Shown: positions 28,445 to 41,836 of the stretch, one piece after another
Position numbering within the stretch: position 1 is the first letter of the stretch
Layout of the letters: each line of letters starts with the position of its first letter
Assembly: GCA_014238205.1 (NCBI GenBank)
Contig: JABABM010000008.1
Coordinates: 1,615-65,614, forward strand
Reading direction: 5' to 3'
Source of the DNA: Phycisphaerales bacterium
Lineage (GTDB): Bacteria > Planctomycetota > Phycisphaerae > Phycisphaerales > SM1A02
DNA: 64,000 nucleotides
Notes under the pieces: generated by a model
What the model saw: only the letters and a program-made list of their open reading frames with translations
What the model was told of the DNA's origin: nothing
Database searches by the model: none
Made by a program: the position numbers and the translations under genes

Positions 28445-29170
28445 ATGACCGAAGAAGCAACAAACCCAACACCGGAAGAAACCACGGACGCTGCGCCGGA
28501 AACTGCCTCTGAAGCAACTTCCGAGCCGACGGCTGATGCTGCAGACGCAGCAAGTCCCGAAGTTGACAAGGCTCCTGCAAGTAAGAGTGAGCCTGTTGCT
28601 GAACCTGCTGCTGAACCTGTTGCTGAACCTGTTGCTGAACCTGCTGCTGAACCTGCTGCTGCACCTGTGGCTGCACCTGCTGCTGCACCTGTGGCTGCAC
28701 CTGCTGCTGCACCTTCGGACGAACCGAAAGCTCCTGCTCCCGAAGACTCCGTACTCGAGAAGGTGTCACTTCCCGCAGATGCACATGGGTGGTGGCGTGG
28801 TACAGGTCGTCGAAAGGCTGCCGTTGCCCGCGTCCGCATCAAGCCGGGAGAAGGCTCGTTCATAGTCAATCAGCGACCAATGGAATCGTTCTTCAACGAG
28901 GAGCGTGACCAGAAGAACCTCATGGCAGTCCTGGAGAAGACGAGCATGGTCGGATCCGTGGACATTCACGCCAAGGTCAATGGTGGCGGCTATACCGGTC
29001 AGGCCGGTGCCATCATCCTGGGACTTGGACGTGCACTTCGGAATTACGACGTTTCGCTGGAATCCACATTGCGTGAGAATGGGTTCCTCAGCCGCGATCC
29101 ACGTAAAGTCGAGCGGAAGAAGCCTGGTCAACCCGGCGCCCGCAAGAAGTTCCAGTTCTCGAAGCGTTGA
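28445..29170 (+). CDS. rpsI: 30S ribosomal protein S9 with long Ala/Pro/Glu N-terminal extension
   Basis: The S9 core occupies about residues 115-241: GTGRRKAAVARV, GSFIVNQRP, GGGYTGQAGAI, LGLGRAL, and the C-terminal tail KKFQFSKR, which in other ribosomes reaches the P-site tRNA. Residues 1-110 are an added acidic/Ala-Pro extension with tandem AEPV/AEPA and AAPV/AAPA units, encoded by a 12-base repeat. S9 usually has about 130 residues, so this protein is nearly twice as long. The tail is probably disordered and solvent-exposed. The ATG is at 28445, and no core-proximal start has a good ribosome site. Confidence 0.95.
   Translation: MTEEATNPTPEETTDAAPETASEATSEPTADAADAASPEVDKAPASKSEPVAEPAAEPVAEPVAEPAAEPAAAPVAAPAAAPVAAPAAAPSDEPKAPAPEDSVLEKVSLPADAHGWWRGTGRRKAAVARVRIKPGEGSFIVNQRPMESFFNEERDQKNLMAVLEKTSMVGSVDIHAKVNGGGYTGQAGAIILGLGRALRNYDVSLESTLRENGFLSRDPRKVERKKPGQPGARKKFQFSKR
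28592..28712 (+). repeat. 12-base tandem repeat inside rpsI
   Basis: About ten copies of a 12-base unit (gctgaacctgtt / gctgaacctgct, then gctgcacctgtg / gctgcacctgct) lie back to back, encoding AEPV/AEPA and AAPV/AAPA. Such repeats can change number by slippage in frame, so the S9 extension may vary in length between strains. Confidence 0.85.
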
Positions 29171-29191: not shown

Positions 29192-30778
29192 CTACCACAT
29201 GAAGCTCCCGAGCCTTCGTTCGATTGCCGTGACTGTCGTCTCCTCGGATGCGGCCAGGCTGGACAAGGTGCATGGAGCTCCGCCATCAAGCCCGTACCGC
29301 CGACGGACCAGTGTGGCATCGACTGCCGGCATCGCATCGATCAAGGGCAAACGAAGAGGCCGTGGCATGAGGTGAGGCCAGGGTATGTATGACCAGTACA
29401 GTGTCTCCAGGTCGTCGACAGCATCATGAGAACGCACGGCCGCTCGCCTGGGCTGTGGAATGATGCCACGACGATCCAGCTCTGCATTCAGACGCTCTTC
29501 AACCGCCGGCATCAGTCGGGCTGCATCCATGGGATCGCTCCCGTCAATCCGATTGCATATCACTTCCAGCGAGATGGCACGGTAGAGCAATCGCGCCTCA
29601 CGTGGCATGGCTTCAACGGGTTGCTTCAAACGTTCCTCGATGATCCGACCAGCCGAGTTCCATATTTGAAGAACCAGGCGAAGGTGAAGCATGCTCGTCC
29701 AGCGAAGATCCGTCTCCACTGCGTCAAGTTGAGCGACGGATGGCGCCGCGGGCATGATCTCCATTCCTTCCGCTGCCCTGCCCTGGAGCAACTTCAAGGC
29801 CTCCATGTCACGCTGTAGATTTTCAGGCTTCATGTCATCTGCTCCTGTTGCTCCAAGGCAGGCGGGATGAGGGAGCCTGGTGCGACACATCTCCTCTTTG
29901 AGAATGGCGTTTCCTTCCGTGCCTGGCGAAGTCCATGGAAGTGGAATCGCAGCAAGTCGGCGTCGGCGAATCCGAAGCACGGCTCGATGAAGTGCATCCG
30001 GGCTCTTTCCGAAATGATCGGCTATGCGGCGTGTCGCCACCCCCCTGCGACGTGCACGAATAGCCAACTCGATGTCACGATCACGCAGTGGACCATGTTC
30101 CTTGAAGAGCGGAGCCTGGACCCTTGACTCGTTCCGGCGAAGCAGCCGGCGGATCGACTCATGACCTCGGCCTGATTCTGCTGCAAGACGAGCAGATATG
30201 TCATTGAGCGAGGCACCGGGGTCAACAGTGACCAGCTCCCCTGCCCTCTGGATCAACGAAGCACGTTCTTCCCGGCTCATCCGTGTCATGTTCGAAGCTC
30301 GGACGATGCGTTCTCCATGCCTGCCGAGAAATCGCTCGAGCGCATCAGGAAAGCAGGAAAGAATGCGTCGACCCGCCTCGCCACGTACCCAATGCATTAC
30401 AAGGCCGTCCTTGCGACAGCGTTGAAGCGTCCGACGGGAAACACCCCATCTTCGTGCCACCTCGTCCATCGGTACGGCACACCCGCGTGGCTGATCGGGA
30501 TCGAGTGCCAGGTCCCAACTGAGTCGCTGGATGAAGTTGACCAGGTCCCTGGACAGGGCGTTCCCGACAACGGATGTCGATGCGTCAGGTCGATCGGTCC
30601 TGTAGGACGTGATTCGGAACACGATGAAATCGTCTGGATAGAGGCGATCCGGCTCGATGTCTTCGAGGAGCTGCTCTGCGGCATTCATCTGTCGATGGTG
30701 GGTTTCATCCGGTGCATATTCAAGTTGCCTCAGGAGTTCCTGCAGGACGACGCTCGTGAAAGAAGCCGTTCGCGGCAT
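29192..30778 (-). CDS. Multi-HTH protein with sigma-70 region-4-like C-terminus
   Basis: A 528-residue cytosolic protein, read from the ATG at 30778 one base after the mqnA stop. I see at least four helix-turn-helix-like segments: 104-122 (MDEVARRWGVSRRTLQR), 190-213, 240-268 (RGVATRRIADHFGKSPDALH) and a C-terminal unit 490-525 (RRRYGLDGG, then TLSSLAA, then IERRLGSF) that closely follows sigma-70 region 4. No clear sigma region 2 (core-binding) is visible by eye, so it may be a sigma-derived regulator and not a complete sigma factor. A longer frame extends to 31054 inside mqnA. Its targets are unknown; coupling to mqnA is by position. Confidence 0.7.
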   Translation of the reverse strand: MPRTASFTSVVLQELLRQLEYAPDETHHRQMNAAEQLLEDIEPDRLYPDDFIVFRITSYRTDRPDASTSVVGNALSRDLVNFIQRLSWDLALDPDQPRGCAVPMDEVARRWGVSRRTLQRCRKDGLVMHWVRGEAGRRILSCFPDALERFLGRHGERIVRASNMTRMSREERASLIQRAGELVTVDPGASLNDISARLAAESGRGHESIRRLLRRNESRVQAPLFKEHGPLRDRDIELAIRARRRGVATRRIADHFGKSPDALHRAVLRIRRRRLAAIPLPWTSPGTEGNAILKEEMCRTRLPHPACLGATGADDMKPENLQRDMEALKLLQGRAAEGMEIMPAAPSVAQLDAVETDLRWTSMLHLRLVLQIWNSAGRIIEERLKQPVEAMPREARLLYRAISLEVICNRIDGSDPMDAARLMPAVEERLNAELDRRGIIPQPRRAAVRSHDAVDDLETLYWSYIPWPHLMPRPLRLPLIDAMPAVDATLVRRRYGLDGGAPCTLSSLAASEETTVTAIERRLGSFMW

Positions 30779-30779
30779 T

Positions 30780-31604
30780 TCATGCCCCTGGGAAACAAAG
30801 CGGCCTGCACTGTTCGACGAGGCCGTGGGCTGCTGCAAGTTCGAAGAATCGTTCGAGTCCCTCCCGCTGAAGTTGCCCGAACTCATAGCGGATGCCGGAT
30901 GAAAGGTATTCCTCTGCCGTGTCCTGTGGCCAGTTTCTTGCCCGGCTCTCCCTGCCGACGAGGGTTTCGGAATGCACCCTGTTGTAGCGGTGCTGTCGAT
31001 CAAGGATGCTGACAATCCTTCGTGCATCGTCAGGATCCAGATCGGCTCCGGCAAGCCAGATCCCGAACAGGAATGGAAGCCCGGTCAACTCATGCCACGC
31101 TTCCCCCAGATCCATCTGGTACGGGTAGCGGCCTGGAGGTGGTGAACCGGAAATGACCTTGTCTCCGATCAACATGACTGCCGGGGGCCATTCAACATTT
31201 TCGACTGCGGCATCGAAAGGAACGACATTCACTTGCCGTGCATATCCTTCTCGGAGGAGTACCTGGAGCAGTACGACCGACGTGTGGCTGTCCGAGTCGC
31301 AGGAAACCTCGTCAAGAGTTTCGAATGGCATGGTTGAATACAGGCGAACGGTCTTCGTTGCGCCGATGCAGCCAAGCGAAGGCGCCGGCAGAATGACCAG
31401 TGGCGCCGTGGATTGCTGGTAATCGATCGAAGAGCAGAGGGCTGCATCAACCTCGCCCTGTTCAAGCAGGTTGATCAATCTGCTTGGAACCGCCTCGGTC
31501 AGGCAGATGTCATCACAGACCTCAAGCCCCGAGATGATGGGCTGGGTATTGAGGAACCTTACGACTCCAAGCCGGAGTGGCTGCACGAGCGACTTCGCTT
31601 CCAT
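30780..31604 (-). CDS. mqnA: Chorismate dehydratase (MqnA), futalosine menaquinone pathway
   Basis: Turns chorismate into 3-[(1-carboxyvinyl)oxy]benzoate, the first committed step of futalosine-route menaquinone synthesis. The periplasmic-binding-protein-like fold shows LRLGVVRFLNTQPI at the N-terminus, EVDAALCSSIDYQ, the SHTSVVLLQVLL motif, and LPFLFGIWLAG. The chosen ATG at 31604 gives 274 residues, close to the family; an in-frame ATG at 31664 adds 20 residues without match. No other mqn gene is in the window. The HTH/sigma-like gene follows directly on the same strand. Confidence 0.9.
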   Translation of the reverse strand: MEAKSLVQPLRLGVVRFLNTQPIISGLEVCDDICLTEAVPSRLINLLEQGEVDAALCSSIDYQQSTAPLVILPAPSLGCIGATKTVRLYSTMPFETLDEVSCDSDSHTSVVLLQVLLREGYARQVNVVPFDAAVENVEWPPAVMLIGDKVISGSPPPGRYPYQMDLGEAWHELTGLPFLFGIWLAGADLDPDDARRIVSILDRQHRYNRVHSETLVGRESRARNWPQDTAEEYLSSGIRYEFGQLQREGLERFFELAAAHGLVEQCRPLCFPGA

Positions 31605-31913
31605 CGTCACAGTATATGCGGGTATCCGACGCTTCCCGACAGCCTGGCAACCACCCCCTTGCACAGCAGGGAATGGGCCGGCATCGGTTCATGAGTCGTC
31701 GAGCCCGGGAAGCGCGAGAGCAAGGTGGTGCGGCCCGCAGGCGGCTCCGCGTTTTCGTCTCGCTTCCAGGGCTCGAGGATCATGAAATGCCACGCTCGGC
31801 GCCGGACTGTCTATCGGTCTGCTGCACCAGCTGCACCAGCAATTGCAGAGCAGGGCTGGTCCATTTCAAATCAGCTGAATTATCGCACCTTGCACGGTAT
31901 CCGGACGCTGGAG
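31605..31913. other. Intergenic region between mqnA and alr
   Basis: 309 bases without a convincing gene. It lies downstream of alr and upstream of mqnA, both on the minus strand, so it should hold the alr 3' end and the mqnA promoter. A short CACCAGCTGCACCAGCA near-repeat is near 31825. Plus-strand frames here look like antisense noise. Confidence 0.5.
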
Positions 31914-38562: not shown

Positions 38563-39201
38563 TCAGGCGCGGCGGCGTCTACGACCAGCGATGCCAGCGA
38601 GACCCAGCAGGGCGAGAGCGCCCGGAGCTGGAAGCCACTGGTCATTAGCTGACCATGTATTGCCGTCTGCATCCTTGCCTTGGAAGTTGAGACTTCCATA
38701 GAGGTCTGAATCAGAGCCTCCACCGGAAAGCGTCAACTGGGCAATAAGAACTCTACCACCGTTTTCTGCACCCTGAGCATCGTCAGGAGTGACATACCAC
38801 GAACCATTGGACGTGGTTACTTCGTCACCGAAGGCTGAGAAATCGACACCCTGCTGTGCAACTACATTTCCGCCGTCACTGTCAGCCAGGCCAATCGTGA
38901 CCCAACTGTCGTGAATTAGACTTGGAAATGCGCCGTACAGCAATGGATTGATGTTGGTGGACATGTTGCCACCAAAAGCATTCTGGTAGAGGGCTGCCCC
39001 TCCAAGATGCAGTGGGTTGTCTGCGCTGCCAAAGACAGCGTCAAGACGCGCACCTGCGTCAAGGTCCACGTAGATTCGGTACGTATCGCCGTAAGCGGAT
39101 TGCGCATGCAAATCAGCTGACATACCTTGGTATGCAGCAGATGCGGTGCCCGCTAAGAGCAACATCCCGACTCCGGAACCAACCGAAATCATTCTGTTCA
39201 T
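38563..39201 (-). CDS. PEP-CTERM-like secreted protein (family member 1)
   Basis: A 212-residue exported protein. Signal peptide (VGSGVGMLLLAGTASA), a beta-rich body (DTYRIYVDLDAGARLDAVFG, SWVTIGLADSDGGN, SWYVTPDDAQG), and a C-terminal sorting signal WLPAPGALALLGLAGIAG followed by RRRRRA, the Phycisphaerae form of PEP-CTERM. Such proteins are usually anchored and cut by an exosortase. GGGAGGAAAC precedes the ATG at 39201. It is the first of three tandem relatives, and the middle of the gene is nearly identical to that of member 2. Each has its own terminator. Confidence 0.88.
   Translation of the reverse strand: MNRMISVGSGVGMLLLAGTASAAYQGMSADLHAQSAYGDTYRIYVDLDAGARLDAVFGSADNPLHLGGAALYQNAFGGNMSTNINPLLYGAFPSLIHDSWVTIGLADSDGGNVVAQQGVDFSAFGDEVTTSNGSWYVTPDDAQGAENGGRVLIAQLTLSGGGSDSDLYGSLNFQGKDADGNTWSANDQWLPAPGALALLGLAGIAGRRRRRA
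38770..39180. repeat. Near-identical duplicated segment, copy 1
   Basis: This stretch matches 39875-40285 at an offset of 1105 bases with only scattered differences (three in a 165-base sample). Identity stops near the signal-peptide start on one side and falls off gradually toward the 3' ends of the genes, which suggests a recombination tract within the paralogues. Confidence 0.85.
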
Positions 39202-39423
39202 GAGATAGTTTCCTCCCTCTCTGTACAGAGTTAGTAGTGCGCAGCCCTTCTCATTCAGGAGGTCTTGTACCAGCCATGTGCGCCACCGTCTGCACACCAG
39301 CACGGCGGACCAGTACCGCCTCCAACATTTTCTTCCACCCCCCAAGTTATCTCAGCCGACTGTCTCGTCAATGGCAAACTCCGTATTCATTCTCAATTTC
39401 TGGCCATTACCAAATCGCTGATT

Positions 39424-39443
39424 AACAGGCTTTAAAGCCTGTT
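39424..39443. promoter_or_regulatory. Perfect 20-base palindrome, candidate operator
   Basis: AACAGGCTTTAAAGCCTGTT is fully self-complementary, without a spacer loop. It lies about 225 bases upstream of PEP-CTERM-like gene 1. It could be a dimer-binding operator. No T-run follows, so a terminator is unlikely. I did not find an equal palindrome upstream of members 2 and 3. Confidence 0.4.
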
Positions 39444-39560
39444 GACCTTGGATAAAGACCTCTCCAAAGGCCATTACAACTCGAGTTCAACCTGTCAACA
39501 TCTATTTTGAAAGTGAAGTCGCGTTTACATGCTCTTCAAGGCCATGTGCATCCATTCGTC

Positions 39561-39598
39561 ACTAAAAGAAATCGCCCTGGGACATGCCCAGGGCGATT
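39561..39598 (-). terminator. Terminator after PEP-CTERM-like gene 2
   Basis: ATCGCCCTGGG (39571-39581) pairs with CCCAGGGCGAT (39587-39597). On the minus strand the T-rich TTCTTTTAGT follows. An identical (GT)7 run lies on its gene side, as for member 1. Confidence 0.85.
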
Positions 39599-39667
39599 CG
39601 TGTGTGTGTGTGTGAACGTGACCTGTTGCCTACGAGGCTAAATCACGTCGAACGATCACATGACCGT

Positions 39668-40306
39668 TCAGGCGCGACGTCGCCGGTGACCGGCGATCCC
39701 CGCAAGACCCAGAAGGGCAAGTGCCCCAGGTGCTGGGAGCCACTGATTCGTTGCACCCCAGTTGCTTCCATCAGCAGTCTTGCCTTGGAAGTTGAGGTTG
39801 CCATACAGATCAGCATCTGTTCCACCACCGGAAATCGTCAACTGGGCAATCAATACCCTGCCACCGACTTCTTCACCCTGAGCATCGTCAGGAGTGACAT
39901 ACCACGAACCATTGGACGTGGTTACTTCGTCACCGAAGGCTGTGAAATCGACACCCTGCTGTGCAAGTACATTTCCGCCGTCACTGTCAGCCAGGCCAAT
40001 CGTGACCCAACTGTCGTGAACTAGACTTGGAAATGCGCCGTACAGCAATGGATTGATGTTGGTGGACATGTTGCCACCAAATGCATTCTGGTAGAGGGCT
40101 GCCCCTCCAAGATGCAGTGGGTTGTCTGCGCTGCCAAAGACAGCGTCAAGACGCGCACCCGCGTCAAGGTCCACGTAGATTCGGTACGTATCGCCGTAAG
40201 CGGATTGCGCATGCAAATCAGCTGACATACCTTGGTATGCAGCAGATGCGGTGCCCGCTAAGAGCAACATCCCGACTCCGGAACCACATAGGTAATAGGT
40301 CTTCAT
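39668..40306 (-). CDS. PEP-CTERM-like secreted protein (family member 2)
   Basis: 212 residues, the same length as member 1. It differs at the first seven residues (MKTYYLC against MNRMISV), is almost identical from GSGVGM to the NGSWYVTPDDAQG block, and then diverges up to the C-terminal signal LPAPGALALLGLAGIAG + HRRRRA. The start is ATG 40306 (AGGAG about 9 bases upstream); the frame extends six codons further. One Arg of the terminal cluster is His here. The gene has its own terminator and an upstream region unlike that of member 1, so it may be expressed separately. Confidence 0.88.
   Translation of the reverse strand: MKTYYLCGSGVGMLLLAGTASAAYQGMSADLHAQSAYGDTYRIYVDLDAGARLDAVFGSADNPLHLGGAALYQNAFGGNMSTNINPLLYGAFPSLVHDSWVTIGLADSDGGNVLAQQGVDFTAFGDEVTTSNGSWYVTPDDAQGEEVGGRVLIAQLTISGGGTDADLYGNLNFQGKTADGSNWGATNQWLPAPGALALLGLAGIAGHRRRRA
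39875..40285. repeat. Near-identical duplicated segment, copy 2
   Basis: The counterpart of 38770-39180. Differences include one in the codon that gives Val instead of Ile (SLVHDSW), a few third-position changes and a run of changes toward the 3' end of the gene. Confidence 0.85.
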
Positions 40307-40755
40307 TGACCGTCTCCTCTTCACTAGAAACTGCAGTTATGTGCGAGGTTCTTCTCTCAGAGGTGTCAGCAGATCGGGTCACCACCAGGTTCGCACTGGC
40401 TGGCGGATCACACGATCACACCTCATCGCTTCCAGTAGTGAAGATACCCCCGTATCGGGCTTGGTCAAGTTGCTGTAAGCACACAAGTGAAACAAGGGGC
40501 GATATTTAAAGCCCGACTTGAAATTACGACCTTAAGACTATTGCAAAGGCATTTTTATCTTTCTTTGAATGTGATTTCGCTGTGGATGACAGGTGTGATC
40601 TTGGTGAATTCACCAGACTTCGCCTGGCATTCTCCACGTGTCCAAAGCCCGAGCTTTCAACTGAAAAAAGACATCGCCCCGGCCAAAGGCCGGGGCGATG
40701 CAGTACTTCAGAGTGAAGCTGATGTCTTCCCTGGGGAAGGCACCGCTTGCCGCAC
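40307..40755. other. Intergenic region between PEP-CTERM-like genes 2 and 3
   Basis: 449 bases. It holds the upstream region of member 2 and the terminator of member 3 near 40662-40700. No gene or known RNA is apparent; an AT-rich patch lies at about 40500-40600. Confidence 0.6.
40661..40700 (-). terminator. Terminator after PEP-CTERM-like gene 3
   Basis: CATCGCCCCGGCC (40672-40684) pairs perfectly over 13 bases with GGCCGGGGCGATG (40688-40700), loop AAA. On the minus strand TCTTTTTTCAG follows: a strong intrinsic terminator. Confidence 0.9.
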
Positions 40756-41409
40756 TCAGGCGCGACGTCGACGACGTCCTGCGACACCAGCAAGACCCAG
40801 AAGGGCCAATGCACCAGGTGCGGGCAGTGCGAACTCGTACGAGACGCTCTCAGCGGTCCAGTTGCTTCCATCGGCGTTCTTGCCCTGCATGGAAACGGTG
40901 CCCACGAGGAGGGAATCGCTGCCTGAGGTCGTAAACTGCGCGATAAGGACGCGTCCGCCAACTTCCTGACCCTGGGCATCATCCGGGGTGACGTAGAAAG
41001 AACCATCGCTGGTGCTTGTTTCGTCGGCTCCGAAGTTCATGCCGATGTCGGAAAGTGCGTTGTCTACTTGGTCTTCAAGGCCGATCGTGACCCAGCTGTC
41101 ATAGACAAGACTGGGAAACGCGGAATAAAGAGCCGGGTTGATCGCTGCGGAGGTATTTCCTCCGAACGAGTTCTGGTAGAGCGAGCTAGTTGTGCCCATG
41201 CTCAACGGATTGGAACCATTGCCGTAGACCGCATCAAGACGATCGCCAGCACCCAATTCCGCATAGATTCGAGCTGTCCAGTGGCCAGAAATGCCATCCG
41301 CCATATTAGACGTAACGTCATAACTCAGGCCATTGAGAGCAGCACCGGCAGCCGAAGCAAGGAGGAGGGATGCTCCACCAGCCAGGACTGATACATGCTT
41401 TACATTCAT
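40756..41409 (-). CDS. PEP-CTERM-like secreted protein (family member 3)
   Basis: 217 residues. Signal peptide MNVKHVSVLAGGASLLLASA, a body with the same blocks as members 1 and 2 (YAELGAGDRLDAVYG, SWVTIGLED, FYVTPDDAQGQEVGGRVLIAQF) and the C-terminal LPAPGALALLGLAGVAG + RRRRRA signal. It is clearly homologous but much more diverged, so it was duplicated earlier. The ATG at 41409 has AGAAAGG upstream; the frame runs 18 codons further. The function of the family is unknown. Expression could be high, given the strong private terminators. Confidence 0.88.
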   Translation of the reverse strand: MNVKHVSVLAGGASLLLASAAGAALNGLSYDVTSNMADGISGHWTARIYAELGAGDRLDAVYGNGSNPLSMGTTSSLYQNSFGGNTSAAINPALYSAFPSLVYDSWVTIGLEDQVDNALSDIGMNFGADETSTSDGSFYVTPDDAQGQEVGGRVLIAQFTTSGSDSLLVGTVSMQGKNADGSNWTAESVSYEFALPAPGALALLGLAGVAGRRRRRA

Positions 41410-41836
41410 GGTAGTTACCTTTCTCTTCTCAACATCGAACCTTGGATCCAAAGTGTTACCCACCCACTACTTCCTACTCTCGAGTTGGGACTCTCAATCA
41501 TGTGTCCCGTAGGAGCATCTGCTTCAGGCGTGCGACCGGTTCGTCCAAAAGCCGCCTGCCTTCCCACAAAACCAGTTGGGTAGTGTTGTGAACAGGTCAT
41601 TAAACGTGTTGTCATAGGAGTTTGCAAGTCCTATTTACGCAGTCCATCAAGCAATCTCCGCATTTGAAATTACCCCCCAGAGGTGGTCAGTCAAGTTTGT
41701 TTTTGGAAGCAGGAGCCTAATTTCTGCCCATCAACCCACCTGAAAGGGCAAAAAAACCGCGACAAGCCCTACAAACCGACCCCTTTGCCCATTCCAAATC
41801 ACTGCATCCCCCTTCAAAACTGTCCTGTATTGAGCT
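41410..41836. other. Intergenic region between PEP-CTERM-like gene 3 and miaB
   Basis: 427 bases upstream of member 3 and downstream of miaB, both on the minus strand. It should carry the member 3 promoter and the miaB 3' end. It has a C-rich and A-rich half (about 41660-41830) and no frame with coding character. I recognise no riboswitch or small RNA. Confidence 0.6.

What the first reader, a model, noticed from the sequence alone, without database searches (positions are those of the whole stretch)
29192..30778. Large multi-HTH protein with a sigma-4-like tail next to mqnA
The 528-residue protein has at least four HTH-like segments and ends in a unit like sigma-70 region 4 (RRYGLDGG, then a Ser-rich helix-turn-helix), but I see no region 2. 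It starts one base after the mqnA stop. It may be a new class of sigma-derived regulator tied to menaquinone synthesis.
Basis: partly seen in the sequence, partly recalled or inferred. Interest (0 to 1): 0.6.

Follow-up and report, generated by a model that had tools for sequence, protein, structure and literature searches.

The report
Sigma factor turned DNA-binding regulator
This gene encodes a protein descended from a bacterial sigma factor (the subunit that tells RNA polymerase where to start) that kept, and strongly conserves, an added set of DNA-binding domains while losing the parts that open the DNA, so it probably works as an ordinary regulator rather than as a sigma factor.

Summary
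The ORF is real: 528 aa, minus strand, ATG one base after the mqnA stop. It is a single-copy gene in 58 of 61 related genomes, and homologs occur across Planctomycetota. Four helix-turn-helix units are confirmed: three in the N-half and one sigma-4-like at the C-end. Region 2 is not absent but eroded. AlphaFold (pLDDT 90) puts residues 308-441 on sigma regions 1.2-2.4 (3.6 Å over 128 residues). In other classes, and in one family of the same order, the same protein passes Pfam cut-offs for Sigma70_r2 and Sigma70_r4. So it descends from a sigma factor with an added N-terminal HTH module. In nearly all other Phycisphaerales the core-binding and -10 motifs are gone, yet the C-half stays under purifying selection.

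mqnA adjacency holds in 63 of 80 species loci. But six genomes without any mqnA/mqnD-family gene keep the protein, and sampled loci outside the order are not mqnA-linked. So a dedicated menaquinone role is not supported.

Best reading: a DNA-binding transcription regulator built from a retired sigma factor. This is a new variant of a known kind; function is untested. Side finding: a covarying ~95-nt hairpin RNA, not matched by Rfam, just upstream of mqnA.

The parts
29192..30778 (-). sigma-derived multi-HTH regulator, 528 aa (P0001), ATG start at 30778
   Evidence: single copy, 58/61 relatives
30509..30778 (-). N-terminal cap (residues 1-90), conserved motif YPxDFVVFRITGYRP
   Evidence: alignments; model
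30299..30481 (-). winged MerR-like HTH (residues 100-160); T117, R120, R122, G125, L126 invariant in A1, R120/R122/G125 still invariant in the 60-sequence A2
30098..30283 (-). tri-helical HTH 2 (residues 166-227)
29939..30085 (-). tri-helical HTH 3 (residues 232-280)
29456..29857 (-). degenerate sigma region 1.2-2.4 fold (residues 308-441), conserved IETDLRWA helix; core-binding and -10 motifs lost
29195..29371 (-). degenerate sigma region 4 (residues 470-528), RRYGLDGG
30780..31664 (-). mqnA, upstream neighbour, stop one base before the regulator's ATG
   Evidence: PF02621 E=1.8e-45
31690..31784 (-). conserved ~95-nt hairpin RNA candidate upstream of mqnA (side finding; not shown to be part of the system)

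Best explanation
A DNA-binding transcription regulator that evolved from a sigma-70-family factor. SHOWN: the ancestral architecture is an N-terminal module with three HTH units joined to a sigma body (regions 1.2, 2 and 4); in nearly all Phycisphaerales sampled, including this genome, the sigma body keeps the fold but has lost the motifs that normally grip the RNA polymerase clamp (2.2) and recognise and melt the -10 element (2.3/2.4), while the N-module is strongly conserved. INFERRED: the N-module binds specific promoter DNA; the protein no longer makes a competent holoenzyme, and acts as an activator or repressor whose sigma-like C-half is a docking or scaffolding surface (possibly weak contact with RNA polymerase or with another sigma). 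Its targets are unknown and probably wider than menaquinone genes.
For: Phylum-wide homologs with the same N-module and an intact sigma body; the f32 and f5 forms pass Pfam cut-offs for Sigma70_r2 and r4 and NCBIfam sigma70 TIGR02937. Against a region-2 HMM built from RpoD/group-2 sigma factors, intact forms score mostly 47-87 bits (lowest f5 member 32), while 98 of 101 loci of the order score under 10 (the 3 over 10 are the f5 loci). The AlphaFold model (pLDDT 90) aligns to sigma-70 regions 1.2-2.4 and 4, with every listed VIA-align row a sigma factor. Some groups kept the N-half while losing still more of the sigma part: f6 lost region 4 altogether, and L124 in another class is eroded and truncated. 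dN/dS in the window genus: 0.10 for the N-half, 0.25 for the sigma half, so both are constrained and the N-half more so. The genome has its own RpoD and 14 other region-2 sigma factors.
Against: No DNA binding, RNA polymerase binding or regulon was tested. The sigma half is still under purifying selection, so it does something, perhaps sigma-like. VIA-align Z of 8-9 is modest for a helical protein; the structural claim leans on homologs as well. Foldseek itself gave no match with E<=0.001.
Confidence: 0.62

Rival explanations
1. It is still a working, very divergent sigma factor that recognises promoters mainly through the N-terminal HTHs and uses a non-standard region 2.
For: Fold of regions 1.2-2.4 and 4 retained; C-half under purifying selection; homologs are real sigma factors; f5 relatives at the same mqnA locus have intact sigma regions.
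Against: The FSTYA..W-type melting motif, the region 2.2 motif (SEGN/SDGN) and the region 4 recognition helix are all lost in f1-f4; f6 has no region 4 at all.
Confidence: 0.15
2. It is one half of a split sigma system: it supplies promoter recognition and works together with the HTH-less paralog sigma (G000:C8:12752-13789, L188), which kept intact regions 2 and 4.
For: The HTH-less paralog is found in 60 of 61 relatives and falls in one clade with HTH-sigma apart from RpoD and other sigmas, SH-aLRT 90; it shares the linker motif preceding region 1.2. Two-part sigma factors exist (B. subtilis SigO-RsoA, PMC10141391).
Against: The paralog is also present in f5 genomes, where the mqnA-linked protein has an intact sigma body, so its presence does not track erosion; no genomic linkage; no test of interaction.
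Confidence: 0.12
3. It is a dedicated regulator of the mqnA operon or of menaquinone synthesis.
For: mqnA directly upstream on the same strand in 63 of 80 species loci and across the f1-f6 groups; 52 of 52 genomes with a PF02621 gene have it, and the 3 genomes without it also lack PF02621.
Against: Six genomes without any PF02621 gene keep it; the intact orthologs in other classes are not mqnA-linked; one of the three double losses is a 70%-complete genome.
Confidence: 0.1
4. The C-half is a decaying remnant with no function; only the N-module matters.
For: Higher dN/dS in the C-half (0.25 against 0.10) and repeated truncation in f6 and L124.
Against: dN/dS clearly below 1 in all close pairs with usable dS (0.04-0.35) and a conserved new motif LDxIETDLRWA.
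Confidence: 0.08

Closest known systems
Sigma-70 family, group 1-3 (RpoD/SigA, RpoS; Pfam PF04542, PF04545)
   Same: Fold of regions 1.2-2.4 and 4; homologs pass both Pfam cut-offs; LRYGLxGxxP turn in region 4 retained.
   Different: Here neither Pfam domain is detected, melting and core-binding motifs are gone, and a ~285-residue module with three HTHs is added at the N-end.
HTH-bearing sigma factors of other Planctomycetota (this report's far group, e.g. L119-L136)
   Same: Same N-module and domain order, mostly single copy; these are the intact homologs.
   Different: They keep FSTYASW and VTKERIRQIE; not next to mqnA.
MerR-family regulators
   Same: The first HTH is a winged MerR-like domain (55-56 residues at 2.0-2.5 Å to 3gpv and 5d90).
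   Different: Single domain in a larger protein; MerR Pfam score below its cut-off; no MerR sensor domain recognised.
Two-part sigma SigO-RsoA of Bacillus subtilis
   Same: Sigma functions distributed over two proteins would be the parallel, if the HTH-less paralog is the partner.
   Different: No evidence of partnership; here one protein carries both eroded regions.

Membership tests
Sigma-70 family | Detectable region 2 (PF04542) at curated cut-off | tested here: not met
   Window protein: no hit. Homologs L120, L157: met.
Sigma-70 family | Region 2 fold | tested here: met
   Residues 308-441 align at 3.6 Å over 128 residues to 6p1k_L, Z 8.6; all listed rows are sigma factors. Modest Z for a helical protein.
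Sigma-70 family | Region 4 (PF04545) | tested here: inconclusive
   Window protein: no PF04545 hit; 11 bits against the local region-4 HMM. Family: 17 of 21 members at E<=1, best 2.3e-11; profile hits SigA region 4 at 1e-6.
Sigma-70 family | Region 2.2 core-binding and 2.3/2.4 -10 motifs | tested here: not met
   Alignment: SEGN/SDGN and FSTYA..W motifs absent in f1-f4 and f6, present in most of f5, f9, RpoD and most of the far group.
Sigma-70 family | Binds core RNA polymerase and directs initiation | not testable with these tools
   Needs biochemistry.
MerR family | MerR N-terminal winged HTH at curated cut-off | tested here: inconclusive
   PF00376 20.3 bits, cut-off 28.2; fold match to MerR proteins over 100-160.
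MerR family | Dimerising coiled coil and C-terminal sensor | tested here: inconclusive
   No MerR-type C-terminal domain recognised in Pfam or in the model; H144-165 is a long helix after the wing.
Two-part sigma (SigO-RsoA type) | Physical pair that together forms holoenzyme | not testable with these tools
   A candidate partner exists; interaction untested.

The most novel reading that the evidence does not exclude
A whole bacterial order has retired a sigma factor: one ancestral HTH-bearing sigma lost its promoter-melting function yet stayed a conserved single-copy gene, and it now works in trans with the HTH-less paralog that kept the working sigma body, a split sigma system made of a promoter reader and a promoter opener.
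Probability: 0.1. Interest if true: 0.82.

Novelty: new variant of a known kind. Interest (0 to 1): 0.52.

Why it matters
Sigma factors are usually thought of as interchangeable initiation subunits. Here a clear series is preserved in living species: intact HTH-bearing sigma (other classes, and f5 of the same order), eroded form (f1-f4), and form without region 4 (f6), with the DNA-binding module conserved throughout. That makes it testable how a sigma factor becomes an ordinary regulator, and what the sigma body is still good for once it cannot melt DNA. No description of this family turned up in the open-access papers searched, though this does not show that none exists.

Tried and rejected
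Plus-strand reading of the coordinates: has stops. Pfam/NCBIfam on the single window protein: only weak generic HTH hits, uninformative alone. phmmer against the PDB with the single sequence: chance hits; the profile was needed. Foldseek alone: no E<=0.001; the second look by VIA-align was needed. An idea that HTH2+HTH3 of the N-half are themselves a sigma3-sigma4 pair: the rows span residues 166-283 on sigma factors but with ~20 Å overall rmsd and Z about 6, so only two common HTHs are matched; not claimed. Search of the Planctopirus essential-gene paper for this gene: only the housekeeping sigma factor is named. Autoregulatory DNA site upstream of mqnA: no operator found; what is conserved there is a hairpin RNA. 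That hairpin as SRP RNA: the genome's SRP candidate is elsewhere (C10, 35.6 bits, slightly below cut-off). The repeat finder missed the hairpin because its arms have a mismatch. A first script mislabelled overlapping mqnA ORFs as 'down'; corrected. Genomes outside Planctomycetota could not be searched by profile; the collection-wide pattern scan kept only the best 80 loci, all Planctomycetota apart from two probably mislabelled bins and one titled only 'bacterium'.

Full report
WHAT IS THERE. The finding's coordinates hold a real gene on the minus strand: 528 aa, ATG at 30778, stop ending at 29192. mqnA itself is secure (PF02621, E=1.8e-45). The protein has one homolog, almost always exactly one, in 58 of 61 related genomes (27-71% identity), and in 51 of 294 genomes drawn from the whole phylum with a single-sequence query.

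ANATOMY. An AlphaFold model from 60 related sequences has mean pLDDT 90, and a model of the N-half alone has 92. The N-half carries a helical cap with the family motif YPxDFVVFRITGYRP, a winged HTH like MerR proteins (residues 100-160), and two tri-helical HTHs (166-227, 232-280). The C-half aligns with sigma-70: residues 308-441 lie on regions 1.2-2.4 at 3.6 Å over 128 residues (6p1k_L, Z 8.6), and the end lies on region 4; every listed row is a sigma factor. The tool warns that Z under about 13 can be a common arrangement for helical proteins, so this is not the only leg of the argument. The family profile also hits solved SigA/RpoS region 4 by sequence at E=1e-6, and 17 of 21 members match Sigma70_r4.

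WHERE IT CAME FROM. In other classes of the phylum the same protein, with the same N-module, is an unmistakable sigma factor: [50 protein letters not shown], and a region 4 ending VTKERIRQIEARALNKLR. One such protein (L120) and one from family f5 of the same order (L157) pass the Pfam cut-offs for both Sigma70_r2 and Sigma70_r4 and the NCBIfam sigma-70 superfamily cut-off; the window protein passes none.

EROSION. I built a region-2 HMM from RpoD and group-2 sigma factors and scored every homolog. Forms outside the order score 54-87 bits (one exception, L124, is itself eroded and truncated). Five f5 members score 47-58 and one 32. All other members of the order, 98 of the 101 loci, score under 10, the window protein with no hit at all. 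f6 has also lost region 4. On a tree of the N-half, members of the order form one clade (SH-aLRT 98) with f5 inside it; parsimony asks for two changes, but starred branches do not rule out one. The C-half is not junk: dN/dS against the nearest relative is 0.25 for the sigma half and 0.10 for the N-half, and the helix LDxIETDLRWA has become strongly conserved.

HOW IT MOST LIKELY WORKS. Shown: a DNA-binding-type module under strong constraint joined to a sigma fold whose core-binding and -10 motifs are gone (that these motifs do those jobs is established knowledge of sigma-70, not tested here). Inferred: it binds specific DNA through the N-module and no longer forms a competent holoenzyme; the C-half serves as a docking or scaffolding surface. 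The genome has a normal RpoD and 14 other region-2 sigma factors, so this protein is not needed as the housekeeping sigma. An HTH-less sigma factor from the same clade (G000:C8) is found in 60 of 61 relatives. A partnership is possible but unproven: it is equally present in f5, where the mqnA-linked protein is still an intact sigma factor.

MENAQUINONE. mqnA lies directly upstream on the same strand (-30 to 200 bases) in 63 of the 80 species loci (81 of all 101 loci counted, with duplicates). The link survives in families where the rest of the neighbourhood has changed, so it is not mere shared background. But G003, G017, G018, G027, G033 and G041 have no PF02621 gene and keep this one, and none of the sampled loci outside the order has mqnA beside the gene; 8 of 20 such genomes have no PF02621 gene at all. 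There is a mild association the other way: all 52 genomes with PF02621 have the gene, and the three that lack it lack PF02621 too, though one of these is only 70% complete. I conclude operon linkage without exclusive function.

SIDE FINDING. The alr-mqnA gap holds a ~95-nt hairpin with strong covariation: 16 of 26 pairs change on both sides, covariation score 0.494 against 0.237 in shuffles and 0.16 at best for slid structures. It occurs in 22 of 81 relatives, all in family f1, is a single place in this genome, and has no Rfam match above a cut-off. In one clade it is inverted relative to mqnA. In G010 it sits just upstream of a relocated mqnA-family gene, in G022 it follows alr on another contig, and in G033, which has no mqnA, two copies remain upstream of the regulator. 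This pattern fits a stand-alone RNA gene better than an mqnA leader. No expression data exist here.

LIMITS. Many genomes are draft assemblies. No binding, transcription or genetics was tested. The literature check covers open-access papers only.

Noticed in passing
window 31690-31784, minus strand: A ~95-nt hairpin RNA candidate upstream of mqnA with a covarying outer stem (16 of 26 pairs change on both sides) and a conserved core GGGACCGCC..GGGCCGACCCAC; present in 22 of 81 relatives, all family f1; no Rfam family fits; it flips orientation and moves with either alr or mqnA, which suggests a stand-alone RNA gene.
   Followed up: partly
G000:C8:12752-13789 (L188): An HTH-less sigma factor from the same clade as the HTH-bearing sigmas, intact regions 2 and 4, found in 60 of 61 relatives, so a Phycisphaerales core sigma factor.
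   Followed up: partly
L124 (G331), another class: A separate case of the same erosion: N-module kept, region 2 degenerate and region 4 missing (461-aa frame).
   Followed up: partly
window 28445-29170, plus strand: Ribosomal protein S9 (rpsI) ORF with a long, acidic, Ala/Pro/Glu-repeat N-terminal extension of about 100 residues.
   Followed up: no
window 38563-41463, minus strand: Three tandem, closely similar secreted-type proteins ending in a PEP-CTERM-like LPAPGALALLGLAGxxGxRRRRA tail.
   Followed up: no
L065 (WYBR01000070.1), L115 (QWIH01000006.1): Two bins titled Vicinamibacteraceae and Leptolyngbya (both isolate PLA1) carry this planctomycete gene; the record titles are probably wrong.
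   Followed up: no
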